The notes under the pieces are model-generated. The model saw nothing but the letters and a program-made list of their open reading frames with translations, was not told the origin of the DNA and ran no database searches. The translations under genes and the position numbers were made by a program. From NCBI RefSeq assembly GCF_002139935.1, contig NZ_CP015578.1, forward strand, positions 744,001 through 808,000: DNA of 64,000 bases. Reading direction: 5' to 3'. Below are positions 53,406 to 57,099 of the stretch, piece after piece. Source of the stretch: Campylobacter lanienae NCTC 13004. GTDB lineage: Bacteria > Campylobacterota > Campylobacteria > Campylobacterales > Campylobacteraceae. Within the stretch, counting starts at the first letter, position 1; each line of letters starts with the position of its first letter.

Positions 53406-54356
53406 CTACTCATCAAATCTAGAAGCGCTTTGAATTTTGCTTTTGGTATTTTCTAATGAGTCATTTTCTACAATTGAGATAATCCCTTTTAAAAGTTTGA
53501 TGGACGCTTCTATCTCTACTTTTCTAGTGGATATGCTCTCTACATTTGCCCCTACGCTAACGCCCTTTGTCTGGCCATATTTGTATAAAAACTCAAACAT
53601 ATCAAGGCTTAATTTCACAGAGTTTTCTAATGGATCATTACTATCAAAGATTCTACGCTTAGATAATTCGCTTATAGATATTCCTAGCCACTGCATAAAT
53701 TCAAAAGTCTTTTCATTACCACATGGTGTAAATGTAAAAATTATCGGAGTATTCTTAATCCCTAAAACAGCAAAATCATCTAAAAATTTCTTAGCAGTCT
53801 CAATATCATAAACCGCTTGAGTGATGAAAAACTCACACCCCTTCACTCTCTTAGAGGCCACTCGTAGATCTTCATTATTTTTTTTCATATGGCGCTCTGG
53901 AATGCAGATGCCACCAAGCGTTAGTGTATTTGCGATCTCTTTTTTCATCTTATAGGCTTCATTTAGAGCAAGTCTAGGAGTATCACTAGCTGAGCTAGCC
54001 CCTACAAATACGCTTATAGCATTACTATGAGATAGCAAAAAATCTCTAAATTCGCTCTTATCATAGTTGCCAACAGCCTTATATATCACAGATTCATAGC
54101 GATTTTGTAAATAATCCTTAGCATAAATTTCAGGATTTATCGTTCGGACAAATTCAAATGTCCTATTATCTGAGTTACGACTACTCTCATCTTGTAAATC
54201 ATAGATTACTAAGCCATCTATCTTTATCCCTTCAAGCCTTTGAAGTTGCTTTAAGGCTATCTCTTTAGCTTTATCTTCGCTTAGACTAATTTTGGGCGGA
54301 GTAAGACCATATAAAATAATTCCCGATCTACCTTGTTTTATCTTATCTTTTAGCAT
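53406..54356 (-). CDS. metF: Methylenetetrahydrofolate reductase (MetF-like)
   Basis: A TIM-barrel flavoprotein that makes 5-methyl-THF for methionine synthesis. The segment LGGICIPERHMKKN then GCEFFITQAVYDIETAKKF matches MetF. At 316 residues it is longer than typical bacterial MetF, and the N-terminus (SGIILYGLTPPK) is not the usual FEFFPPK, so it belongs to a divergent branch. Placed 52 bases after metE on the same strand, it supplies the methyl donor for that enzyme, which supports the call. Confidence 0.75.
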   Translation of the reverse strand: MLKDKIKQGRSGIILYGLTPPKISLSEDKAKEIALKQLQRLEGIKIDGLVIYDLQDESSRNSDNRTFEFVRTINPEIYAKDYLQNRYESVIYKAVGNYDKSEFRDFLLSHSNAISVFVGASSASDTPRLALNEAYKMKKEIANTLTLGGICIPERHMKKNNEDLRVASKRVKGCEFFITQAVYDIETAKKFLDDFAVLGIKNTPIIFTFTPCGNEKTFEFMQWLGISISELSKRRIFDSNDPLENSVKLSLDMFEFLYKYGQTKGVSVGANVESISTRKVEIEASIKLLKGIISIVENDSLENTKSKIQSASRFDE

Positions 54357-54408: not shown

Positions 54409-56670
54409 TTAACTCATACGGACTATTTTAACCGCTTTTACCATATTTTCTAGGCTTGGCTTTACCTCTTGCCATTTGCGTGTTTTTAATCCGCAATCTG
54501 GATTTATCCATAGTTGAGACTTAGGTAGAACTTCTAAAAGCGCATTTATCTGAGTTGCTATCTCTTCGACCGTAGGAATTCTAGGACTATGAATATCATA
54601 TACGCCTGGACCAACTTCTTGCTTATAGCCAACTGATTTAAATATTTTTAATAGCTCATTTCCACTTCTAGCAGTCTCTATGCTGATTACATCAGCGTCC
54701 ATTGCTTCAATGGTTTTGATAATATCGTTAAATTCAGAATAGCACATATGTGTGTGAATCTGTGTAGATGCTTTTGCTACGCTAACGCTTAATTTAAAGC
54801 AATCAACGGCGAATTTTTCATATGCTGCGATATTCTCTTTGCGAAGTGGATATCCCTCTTTAAATGCTGCTTCATCAACTTGAATGATCTTAATACCAGC
54901 TTTTTGTAAATCGTCAATCTCATCATAGATACAAAGCGCAAGCTCTTTAGCTATCTCGCTTCTTGGCTTATCATCTCTAACAAAGCTCCAATTTAGGATA
55001 GTTACAGGGCCTGTTAGCATACCTTTCATAATCTTTGAAGTTTTGCTTTGAGCGTATTTGATCCAATCCACAGTCATAGGTGCTGGGCGACTCACATCAC
55101 CAAAAAGAAGTGGTGGCTTAACACATCTACTACCATAGCTTTGAACCCAACCATTAGCACTGAATGCGTAGCCTTTTAGCTGTTCGCCAAAATACTCAAC
55201 CATATCATTTCTCTCAGGCTCACCATGGACTAATACATCCAATCCGCACTCTTCTTGGAATTTGATACAGTCATCAATATATTTTTTAATCTCACTCTCA
55301 TATGACTCTTTTGTGATTAGAGATTTTTTATATGCGTTACGGACTTGTCTAAGCTCTGGAGTTTGTGGGAAGCTACCTATTGTAGTAGTAGGAAGTTCAG
55401 GTAGATTAAAGGCGGCTTTTTGGATTTTAATACGCTCTTCATAGGCTGTATCTCTATCAAATTTATTTAATGATTTTACCCTATTTTGGACATTTATATC
55501 ATTGATTAATTCTGAAGTTTTTCTTGAAGCAACTGCTGAGCGATTAGCCTCAATCAACGAGCTACCAATCTCACAAAAATCACCACCATTTACCAATTTT
55601 TTTAGAAGTCTAAGCTCGGTAAGCTTCTCAACACCAAAGGCTAGCCACTCTTTTATAGCTAAATTCTCTTCATACTTTAAAGTATATGGAACATGTAAAA
55701 GCGAACACGAAGTGCCAATATATAGGCGATCATCTGGGATAAATTCTTTTATGTTATTTACGATTTGAGCCTTAGCATCAAGGTTGCTAACCCATACATT
55801 TCTACCATCTATCAAGCCAGCAAAAAGCACTTTATCACTCTTAGATAGTATTTTAAGAGCTTTATCTTGTGAAGAGGCATGGACAAAATCCAAACCAATA
55901 GCCCAAATTTTGCTTTTAACTACCTCTTCAACCGCTTCATTAGCATGCTCAAAATAGGTCATAAATATGATTTTAACATTATTTGCAGCAGCGGCTAAAG
56001 CGTCATAAATTGGGACTATTTTGCTAGCTAACTCACTAGCTTTATCAGTTACAAATATCGGCTCATCAATTTGGATTATAACTTCATTATCAAGTTTTGA
56101 AAGCTCATTAATTAGTTTGATATACTCAGCTTTCAAGCTCTCAAGATGATCAAATGCGTTACTCCCATCTGTTGTTTTACTAAGTGCTAAAAATGTAATA
56201 GGGCCGATTAAATTTATCTTAGCGTTATCTACGCCAGCTTCTTTGGCCTCTTTGTATTCTGCGACAATCTTACTACTATCTAATTTAAATTTGGTATCAC
56301 GGCTAAGCTCAGGGACGATATAATGGTAGTTTGTATTAAACCATTTTGTCATCTCCATAGCTACGCTATTAGCATTTCCTCTAGCCATTGAGAAGTATAG
56401 ATCATAGCCATTTAATCCATTAAAGCGTGGCGGAATAGCGCCAAAAGTTATGATATTATCAAGCATTAAATCATAATATGAGAAGTCATTAACACTGATT
56501 AAATCAACTTTAGCCTCTAGCTGATACCCCCAGTGGCGTTTTTTAAGCTCGCTAGCTACCTTTTGGACTTCACCAAAGCTACTTTTACCAGCCCAGAAAT
56601 TCTCAAGGGCGAATTTTAACTCTCTTTGTTCTCCGATTCTAGGAAATCCTGTTACAAAACTTTTTGACAT
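54409..56670 (-). CDS. metE: Cobalamin-independent methionine synthase
   Basis: Transfers methyl from methyl-THF-polyglutamate to homocysteine. A 753-residue double-barrel enzyme; zinc ligands seen in THMCYSEF (His, Cys) and WINPDCGLKTRKW (Cys), homocysteine-binding region VHGEPERNDMVEYFGEQL and MLTGPVTILNW. Complete. A ribosome site AAGGAT precedes the ATG. The 430-base upstream region contains a candidate leader peptide and promoter (below). Confidence 0.95.
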   Translation of the reverse strand: MSKSFVTGFPRIGEQRELKFALENFWAGKSSFGEVQKVASELKKRHWGYQLEAKVDLISVNDFSYYDLMLDNIITFGAIPPRFNGLNGYDLYFSMARGNANSVAMEMTKWFNTNYHYIVPELSRDTKFKLDSSKIVAEYKEAKEAGVDNAKINLIGPITFLALSKTTDGSNAFDHLESLKAEYIKLINELSKLDNEVIIQIDEPIFVTDKASELASKIVPIYDALAAAANNVKIIFMTYFEHANEAVEEVVKSKIWAIGLDFVHASSQDKALKILSKSDKVLFAGLIDGRNVWVSNLDAKAQIVNNIKEFIPDDRLYIGTSCSLLHVPYTLKYEENLAIKEWLAFGVEKLTELRLLKKLVNGGDFCEIGSSLIEANRSAVASRKTSELINDINVQNRVKSLNKFDRDTAYEERIKIQKAAFNLPELPTTTIGSFPQTPELRQVRNAYKKSLITKESYESEIKKYIDDCIKFQEECGLDVLVHGEPERNDMVEYFGEQLKGYAFSANGWVQSYGSRCVKPPLLFGDVSRPAPMTVDWIKYAQSKTSKIMKGMLTGPVTILNWSFVRDDKPRSEIAKELALCIYDEIDDLQKAGIKIIQVDEAAFKEGYPLRKENIAAYEKFAVDCFKLSVSVAKASTQIHTHMCYSEFNDIIKTIEAMDADVISIETARSGNELLKIFKSVGYKQEVGPGVYDIHSPRIPTVEEIATQINALLEVLPKSQLWINPDCGLKTRKWQEVKPSLENMVKAVKIVRMS

Positions 56671-57099
56671 ATTATTATCCTTAATATAATTATTTTAAAA
56701 AATTAAATTTAAATTCTACCATTAATAAAATCACGCATTTCGAAAAAAACAAGCGGAGGCCGCAATCCATGAAATCTATAAAATTGACTAAAATCACTAA
56801 AATAAAATTTTTTTAATTTCAGTAGCGCTATACGAGTTTTACGCCTAAATATACAGTTACAATGTGTAGGGAAAGCAACCATAAAGACCAAATATGATAT
56901 AGCATTTATAAATGAGAGCTGCAAACTAACCAAAAATATAAATTTATCTTTATATAAAGCTTTAGAAATAGTATTATAAGCAAGCACACATGGGACAGCT
57001 CATAGCCTTTATATCCTTAAAAAATTTAAAATTTGGCGGGAATTTTAGCAAAAATCTCATAAATACTAGCTGAAATAGCCTTGCTTTAAGCAAGGACTA
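56671..57099 (-). promoter_or_regulatory. Long leader region of metE
   Basis: 429 bases between ppk and metE. An extended -10 box (TGCTAAAAT, minus strand, 57042-57050) lies upstream of a short frame (56974-57003), and about 300 bases of leader follow. Near 56740-56760 (minus strand) the sequence GCGGCCTCCGC is followed by TTGTTTTTTT, a weak terminator-like element about 80 bases before metE. A 92-codon frame over this region (56709-56987) has no ribosome site and no recognisable features. Confidence 0.5.
56974..57003 (-). CDS. Candidate leader peptide MSCPMCACL upstream of metE
   Basis: ATG AGC TGT CCC ATG TGT GCT TGC TTA TAA: nine codons with three Cys and two Met. AAGGATATAAAGG upstream provides a ribosome site, and a TGCTAAAAT promoter lies about 40 bases further up. 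Its first bases GAGCTG can pair with CAGCTC about 75 bases downstream. Such composition fits ribosome-stalling control by charged tRNA-Cys or tRNA-Met, though this is inferred. Confidence 0.45.
   Translation of the reverse strand: MSCPMCACL

What the first reader, a model, noticed from the sequence alone, without database searches (positions are those of the whole stretch)
56974..57003. Cys/Met-rich leader peptide MSCPMCACL in the metE 5' region
Three Cys and two Met codons in nine, with a ribosome site and promoter upstream, in the leader of a methionine-synthesis gene. The first bases can pair with CAGCTC about 75 bases downstream, and a GC-rich element followed by T7 occurs before metE. 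This fits ribosome-mediated attenuation that senses cysteine (the source of homocysteine sulfur) rather than, or as well as, methionine. Classical leader peptides sense the end product, so cysteine control of metE would be unusual.
Basis: partly seen in the sequence, partly recalled or inferred. Interest (0 to 1): 0.7.

Follow-up and report, generated by a model that had tools for sequence, protein, structure and literature searches.

The report
Frameshift-dependent leader gene before metE
The suspected nine-residue leader peptide is really the first few codons of a conserved roughly 95-residue gene that ribosomes can make only by slipping forward one base, and this gene sits just in front of the methionine-synthesis gene metE in many Campylobacter species, which may let the cell tie metE to its methionine supply.

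Summary
MSCPMCACL* is present at 57003-56974 (-), with ribosome site and promoter-like element. As a peptide it is not conserved: in 49 relatives the frame-0 peptide has 6-18 residues and only 15 have a Cys after codon 4. What is conserved is a gene read in two frames: ATG NNN TGY CCC | A | TGY, then over 80 codons in the +1 frame. All 49 members, in three genus groups, keep CCC-A. The +1 frame is under purifying selection, lacks a conserved start and begins with an invariant Cys. Only one tRNA-Pro (UGG) was found in three genomes; in published assays this tRNA slips +1 best on CCC-A. metE follows directly in 45 of 46 members with enough sequence. In-frame relatives precede metE in 97 of 99 other genomes and a TonB receptor, mostly B12/heme-like, in 12 of 12 further copies read. 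Best reading: a programmed +1 frameshift gates a metE leader protein. Frameshifting is strongly supported by comparison (0.92); cis control of metE (0.6), Met/SAM as signal (0.35) and a B12 link (about 0.4) are inference. Cysteine attenuation is not supported. No expression data were available.

The parts
57042..57047 (-). -10-like element TAAAAT; a hexamer of this type lies 30-38 nt before the ATG in 16 of the 18 leaders listed (44 nt in G111, 57 nt in G115)
   Evidence: consensus match only
57014..57018 (-). Shine-Dalgarno-like AAGGA, 10 nt before the frame-0 ATG; 49 of 49 relatives have an SD-like match 6-11 nt upstream
56974..57003 (-). zero-frame product MSCPMCACL* (unshifted); first four codons shared with the full gene
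56991..56994 (-). shift site CCC-A: P-site proline codon 4 plus the skipped A; invariant in 49 of 49
   Evidence: UGG is the only tRNA-Pro among 40 of 40 tRNAs of the genome
56989..56991 (-). zero-frame A-site codon AUG (Met) at the shift; forced by CCC-A plus Cys TGY
   Evidence: inference on function
56709..56990 (-). +1 frame, CVLAY...HCNC...HGLRPPLVFFEMRDFINGRI and stop; with codons 1-4 gives a 97-aa product MSCP-CVLAY...
54409..56670 (-). metE, starts 38 nt after the +1-frame stop
53406..54356 (-). metF-like gene following metE
   Evidence: name given by eye from the sequence, no family search run on it

Best explanation
The metE mRNA starts with a small gene that needs a programmed +1 ribosomal frameshift at its fourth codon. 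Ribosomes start at the ATG and read Met-x-Cys-Pro. At CCC, the only proline tRNA (anticodon UGG) pairs poorly. It can slip one base forward onto CCA, so the next codon is UGY (Cys) instead of AUG (Met). Unshifted ribosomes stop after 6-18 codons. Shifted ribosomes make a protein of 86 to about 100 residues in most members (124 in one) with MxCPC at the start, a HCNC cluster and a Pro-Pro near the end, terminating shortly before metE. I propose that translation of this leader controls metE in cis. The slip should rise when methionine is short, because the P-site tRNA then waits beside an empty AUG codon, and because m1G37 on tRNA-Pro (made with SAM, the main brake on slipping) should fall. Shown here by comparison: the site, the two-frame gene, its selection, its place before metE and the tRNA set. 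Inferred: that the shift happens in cells, that it regulates metE, and what it senses. Estimates: frameshift 0.92; cis control of metE 0.6; Met/SAM signal 0.35.
For: 49 of 49 members found keep ATG-NNN-TGY-CCC-A-TGY, across seven codon-2 variants and synonymous changes in codon 3 (TGT 44, TGC 5) and in the Cys after the shift (TGC 38, TGT 11). The +1 frame has pN/pS 0.03-0.35 in 12 of 12 pairs; frame 0 gave 0.90-3.76 in 10 pairs and was undefined (pS 0) in 2. The +1 frame has no conserved start: 8 of 49 have none before HCN, and GTG at codon 6 occurs in 4 of 49. SD-like match before the frame-0 ATG in 49 of 49. metE directly downstream in 45 of 46 with enough sequence. Single tRNA-Pro (UGG): 40 of 40 tRNAs in own genome, 46 of 47 seen in G074, 37 of 37 in G030. 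Literature: native UGG tRNA-Pro shifts +1 fastest and furthest on CCC-A (PMC4519876, abstract and passages); the +1 shift occurs in translocation or in the P site next to an empty A site (PMC8384417, passages); m1G37 is the dominant brake for the UGG isoacceptor and is made with AdoMet (PMC6335274, passages).
Against: No expression, ribosome-profiling or mass-spectrometry data. G115 keeps the frameshift gene although no metE was found in that genome, which argues for a function beyond cis control of metE or for a recent loss. The Met codon at the A site is forced by CCC-A plus a Cys codon, so its conservation is not independent support for methionine sensing. AUG is a common codon (360 of 18037) and no internal SD-type or structural stimulator was identified. 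No conserved terminator was found and the own leader has no C-over-G excess (C/G 0.8), so a Rho or terminator step has no positive support. Some relatives have metE without the gene (G011, G015, G018, G035).
Confidence: 0.6

Rival explanations
1. Programmed frameshift gene whose protein works in trans (for example a metal-, heme- or cobalamin-binding small protein serving methionine synthesis), with the frameshift running at a fixed rate and no sensing.
For: Invariant C3, C5, H47, C48 in 16 of 16 aligned products; purifying selection on the protein; G115 keeps the gene without metE.
Against: Position directly before metE in 45 of 46 and before metE or a TonB receptor in the wider family suggests a cis role; no Pfam or NCBIfam match.
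Confidence: 0.25
2. Cobalamin-linked leader: the whole family is a cis-acting sensor for metE and B12 uptake, in which the nascent Cys cluster binds a ligand near the ribosome exit and the Pro-Pro near the C-terminus stalls the ribosome; the Campylobacter frameshift is an added control. Compatible with the best explanation.
For: 97 of 99 non-f1 genomes with both listed have it upstream of metE. 12 of 12 other copies whose downstream gene was read precede a TonB receptor; the B12-receptor model TIGR01779 is the best NCBIfam match in 6 and among the top three in 11; a BtuF-like gene follows in 6. No cobalamin riboswitch or other Rfam match in the leaders scanned. The Cys cluster lies 31-39 residues before PP in 48 of 49 f1 members and 16 of 16 others.
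Against: TonB and BtuF scores are below NCBIfam's curated cut-offs, and several receptors score equally or better for heme or siderophore models. No stall or ligand shown. Structure model uninformative (pLDDT 49.5). G115 has the gene before a prs-like gene, not a B12 gene.
Confidence: 0.4
3. Cysteine-sensing ribosome attenuation by MSCPMCACL.
For: Three Cys codons in nine; upstream of metE.
Against: Cys 6 and 8 not conserved (15 of 49 have any Cys after codon 4); no terminator; the region is coding in the +1 frame.
Confidence: 0.04
4. The +1 ORF starts on its own at a non-standard codon and frame 0 is an unrelated uORF.
For: GTG at codon 6 in G000, G008, G002, G013.
Against: That codon is GTA, ATA, CTG or another elsewhere; conservation of the protein begins exactly after CCC-A with an invariant Cys; a stop closes the +1 frame within 35 nt upstream in the 30 loci; the SD precedes the frame-0 ATG.
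Confidence: 0.05

Closest known systems
prfB (release factor 2) +1 programmed frameshift
   Same: Short zero-frame start, obligatory +1 shift to reach the main frame, decoding speed of the A-site codon as the control (PMC5009743, passages).
   Different: Shift codon CCC before a sense codon, not CUU before UGA; at codon 4; unrelated protein; no internal SD-like stimulator identified.
ErmCL leader: ketolide-induced frameshift lets ribosomes read into the spacer and unfold ermC
   Same: Frameshift in a leader ORF controlling the next gene (PMC5009743, section 28 read).
   Different: Drug-induced and largely sequence-independent; here a conserved shift site and a conserved trans-frame protein.
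pheL CCC_UGA and Listeria phage tsh CCC_UGA shifts
   Same: +1 slip on CCC; pheL is an amino-acid leader (PMC5009743, passages).
   Different: Followed by a stop codon; the review calls the pheL shift incidental to attenuation.
mgtL proline codons and TrmD (Salmonella)
   Same: A leader ORF whose Pro codons report tRNA m1G37 status (PMC6335274, passages).
   Different: The passages describe codon-specific translation in the leader under low Mg2+, not a programmed frameshift for a methionine gene.
C. jejuni MetL leader peptide
   Same: Methionine-gene leader peptide in Campylobacter (PMC3847290, passages; start-site signal in PMC11955535, passages).
   Different: 20 aa, 3 Met codons, precedes metBA, short terminated RNA; orthologs reported only in C. 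jejuni, C. coli and C. doylei.
M. tuberculosis metE B12 riboswitch with uORF
   Same: uORF translation in a metE leader affects MetE (PMC11260477, abstract).
   Different: Has an RNA aptamer; none found here by Rfam.

Membership tests
Programmed +1 frameshift gene | Zero-frame ORF with own start and ribosome site | tested here: met
   ATG in 49 of 49, SD-like match in 49 of 49
Programmed +1 frameshift gene | Downstream frame under purifying selection without its own start | tested here: met
   pN/pS 0.03-0.35 in 12 pairs; no conserved start
Programmed +1 frameshift gene | Conserved slip-prone P-site codon able to re-pair | tested here: met
   CCC-A 49 of 49; only UGG tRNA-Pro found
Programmed +1 frameshift gene | Slow A-site codon or stimulator | tested here: inconclusive
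   AUG is not a rare codon (360 of 18037); slow only if Met-tRNA is short; no conserved stimulator seen
Programmed +1 frameshift gene | Trans-frame product detected | not testable with these tools
   needs mass spectrometry or profiling
Amino-acid attenuator leader peptide (trp/his/leu type) | Conserved regulatory codons of one amino acid | tested here: not met
   Cys beyond codon 4 in 15 of 49; one internal Met (codon 5), none after it
Amino-acid attenuator leader peptide (trp/his/leu type) | Terminator/antiterminator in the leader | tested here: not met
   none in the window leader; one weak match in one g4 leader, none on the gene strand of a g5 leader; fold z +1.53
Cobalamin or SAM riboswitch | Rfam match in the leader | tested here: not met
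   no such match at gathering score
Known protein family | Pfam or NCBIfam match of the shifted product | tested here: not met
   0 families at E up to 5 in both
Ribosome arrest peptide | Stalling at a C-terminal motif | not testable with these tools
   PP near C-terminus in 48 of 49 is only suggestive

The most novel reading that the evidence does not exclude
An amino-acid biosynthetic gene controlled by a hungry-codon programmed frameshift: shortage of Met-tRNA, and of SAM through under-methylated tRNA-Pro(UGG), raises +1 slipping at CCC-A so that a conserved trans-frame leader protein is made only in methionine shortage. In the wider order the same leader family, read in frame, acts as a peptide-based cobalamin sensor for metE and B12 uptake, in place of the riboswitch. 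A 2016 review said of trans-frame proteins made specifically in starvation that no examples are known (PMC5009743, passage).
Probability: 0.3. Interest if true: 0.95.

Novelty: new variant of a known kind. Interest (0 to 1): 0.85.

Why it matters
Programmed +1 frameshifting in bacterial chromosomes is known to me mainly from prfB (recalled). Here is a gene family with no Pfam or NCBIfam match and a sense-codon +1 site whose biochemistry was measured in vitro for this tRNA type and tetranucleotide (PMC4519876), in front of the methionine synthase gene. It makes two questions testable: whether bacteria use hungry-codon or tRNA-methylation-dependent frameshifting as a nutrient sensor, and how Campylobacterota control metE and B12 uptake where no cobalamin riboswitch was found in the leaders scanned. 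Gene callers are likely to miss or truncate this gene (inference).

Tried and rejected
Known RNA elements: no Rfam hit in the window; no riboswitch in 30 other loci (the only hits were a tRNA and HPnc0260 far from the leader in L252). Rho-rut composition: not seen in own leader. Pattern scan TGYCCCATGY-N(90,120)-CAYTGYAAYTRY: 13 of 398 genomes; it under-counts because the spacer limit excludes the window's own genus. Protein structure: an in-frame relative gave pLDDT 49.5, uninformative. Literature searches, none of which listed a paper on this frameshift or gene as far as titles and abstract starts show: (all 10 searches; one search was a format error).

Caveats on counts. The 49 members are the strong hits (E at most 2.4e-18) among 153 family genomes; many g4 members are near-identical (20 distinct frame-0 peptides). 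One search used 127 listed A1 hits outside f1; 23 had no listed metE, 104 had, of which 97 were adjacent and 7 not (97 of 99 genomes); both source lists were truncated by the tool. TonB count: 12 non-metE copies whose downstream gene I could read (L355-L360, L365, L366, L369-L372); a thirteenth (L361) ended at its contig. In L365 the small ORF itself was not flagged by my script; it rests on the HMM hit. In 3 of 49 the contig ends before metE could be seen. One of 47 tRNAs of G074 was not typed.

Full report
OBSERVATION. On the minus strand, 57003-56974 reads ATG AGC TGT CCC ATG TGT GCT TGC TTA TAA, MSCPMCACL*. It is preceded by AAGGA and a TAAAAT element and followed by metE at 56670-54409. 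The leader has no Rfam match, no terminator and no unusual fold (z +1.53).

WHAT IT IS. Relatives showed that the RNA after the peptide is protein-coding in another frame. A DNA search of 60 genomes found the leader in close relatives. Upstream regions of metE in the genus showed a shared ATG-AGY-TGT-CCC-ATG start, while conservation after it followed the +1 frame. The +1 product of the window is MSCP-CVLAYNTISKAL...FPTHCNCIFRRKTRIALLKLKKFYFSDFSQFYRFHGLRPPLVFFEMRDFINGRI, 97 residues. It matches no Pfam or NCBIfam family.

A search of 153 genomes of the family with the +1 part and with a profile of 16 shifted products gave 49 strong members: 11 in the window's genus group (g1), 33 in g4 and 5 in g5. 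All 49 were read. Every one has ATG-NNN-TGY-CCC-A-TGY with an SD-like match before that ATG. Codon 2 varies (CCT 31, AGC 7, AGT 4, ACA 2, GCT 2, TCA 2, TCG 1). Codon 3 varies synonymously (TGT 44, TGC 5), as does the Cys after the shift (TGC 38, TGT 11). CCC and the A never vary. CCC is a rare codon: 25 of 580 Pro codons in 46 window ORFs, never followed by ATG there.

The +1 frame is under purifying selection: pN/pS 0.03-0.35 in all 12 pairs tested. Frame 0 gave 0.90-3.76 in 10 pairs and was undefined in 2. Variable columns by +1-frame codon position 1/2/3 are 16/5/32 in 26 g4 members and 19/11/48 in six g1 members. There is no conserved start in the +1 frame: a GTG at codon 6 occurs in 4 of 49, and 8 of 49 have no ATG, GTG or TTG before HCN. 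The frame-0 product is 6-18 residues long and variable. Frame-0 initiation followed by a +1 shift at codon 4 is therefore the simplest account.

WHY IT SHOULD SLIP. Among 40 of 40 tRNA genes of the window's genome there is one tRNA-Pro, anticodon UGG. The same was found in G030 (37 of 37) and G074 (46 of 47 typed). Gamper and colleagues report that native UGG tRNA-Pro pairs weakly with CCC and that its +1 shift on CCC-N is fastest and most complete with CCC-A (PMC4519876, abstract and passages). Related papers state that the shift occurs during translocation or in the P site next to an empty A site (PMC8384417, passages), that m1G37 is the dominant brake for the UGG isoacceptor, and that TrmD uses AdoMet to make it (PMC6335274, passages). 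The measurements are on E. coli tRNA. That Campylobacter tRNA-Pro behaves alike is inference.

CONTEXT. metE starts 20-394 nt after the shifted ORF's stop in 45 of 46 members with enough sequence. Three more end at a contig end. The exception, G115, has no metE match at all and has the gene beside an mnmA-like gene and a prs-like gene, names given by eye. Some relatives have metE without the gene (G011, G015, G018, G035).

WIDER FAMILY. The 16-product profile matched 160 of 398 genomes of the order. Outside the Campylobacter family the homologs are read in frame, lack the MxCPC start, and mostly end in ...FRRTGVHPP or similar. Of 99 such genomes with both a listed hit and a listed metE, 97 have the gene directly upstream of metE on the same strand. 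A profile of in-frame members matched 253 of 398 genomes, 52 of 87 genera. Twelve further copies whose downstream gene I could read all precede a TonB-dependent receptor. In six of them a BtuF-like gene follows: L355, L358, L366, L370, L371, L372. The B12-receptor model TIGR01779 is the best match in 6 of 12 and among the top three in 11 of 12; two receptors (L355, L370) resemble it most clearly (318 and 297 bits, cut-off 599.7), the others score similarly for heme or siderophore types. Curated cut-offs are not reached, so B12 uptake is a likely but unproven label. No riboswitch of any kind was found in these loci. metE and B12 uptake are the classical targets of cobalamin riboswitches (recalled), hence the suggestion that this leader family does that job by translation. 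C70, C72, P109 and P110 are invariant in 16 aligned in-frame members. The Cys cluster stands 31-39 residues before Pro-Pro, about the length of the ribosome tunnel (recalled).

MECHANISM. Shown by comparison: the gene, its two frames, the shift site, selection, position and tRNA set. [quoted passage not shown] Both push towards +1, so the leader protein is made when metE is needed. How leader translation raises metE (coupling, RNA unfolding, protection from Rho, or stalling at Pro-Pro) is open; I found no positive evidence for Rho or a terminator. The Met codon at the site is forced by CCC-A plus Cys, so its conservation alone does not prove methionine sensing. Cysteine could matter because the +1 A-site codon is Cys.

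COMPARISON. prfB is the nearest in logic, ErmCL the nearest in being a frameshift in a leader, pheL and Listeria phage tsh the nearest in slip codon (PMC5009743, passages and section 28). The same review says that no examples are known of starvation-specific proteins made by hungry-codon frameshifting. C. jejuni MetL is a different, classical-looking leader before metBA (PMC3847290, passages).

VERDICT. The peptide is real as an ORF, but it is the by-product or off-state of a frameshift gene.

Noticed in passing
L355-L360, L365, L366, L369-L372: In-frame paralogs of the leader gene sit directly before TonB receptors, mostly B12/heme-like, in six cases followed by a BtuF-like gene, suggesting a shared regulon with metE.
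   Followed up: partly
L254 (G115) from 5987 on the + strand: A genome with no metE match keeps the frameshift gene with its CCC-A site, between mnmA-like and prs-like genes.
   Followed up: partly
L041, L042, L272, L273: metE genes of G015, G011, G018 and G035 lack this leader gene, so these species control metE otherwise or not at all.
   Followed up: no
window 56709-56987 (-): A mechanical ORF caller gives a 92-aa ORF from GTG at 56987, missing the true first residues; in most relatives even that GTG is absent, so the gene may be unannotated.
   Followed up: yes
L366 (G337:C112:35553-35873): The genome search reported a 774-codon open frame at this copy of the small gene, which may mean the leader ORF runs in frame into the TonB receptor there.
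   Followed up: no
L345 (G074:C1:1766467-1766560): A selenocysteine tRNA gene is present in this g4 genome; none was among the 40 tRNAs of the window's genome.
   Followed up: no
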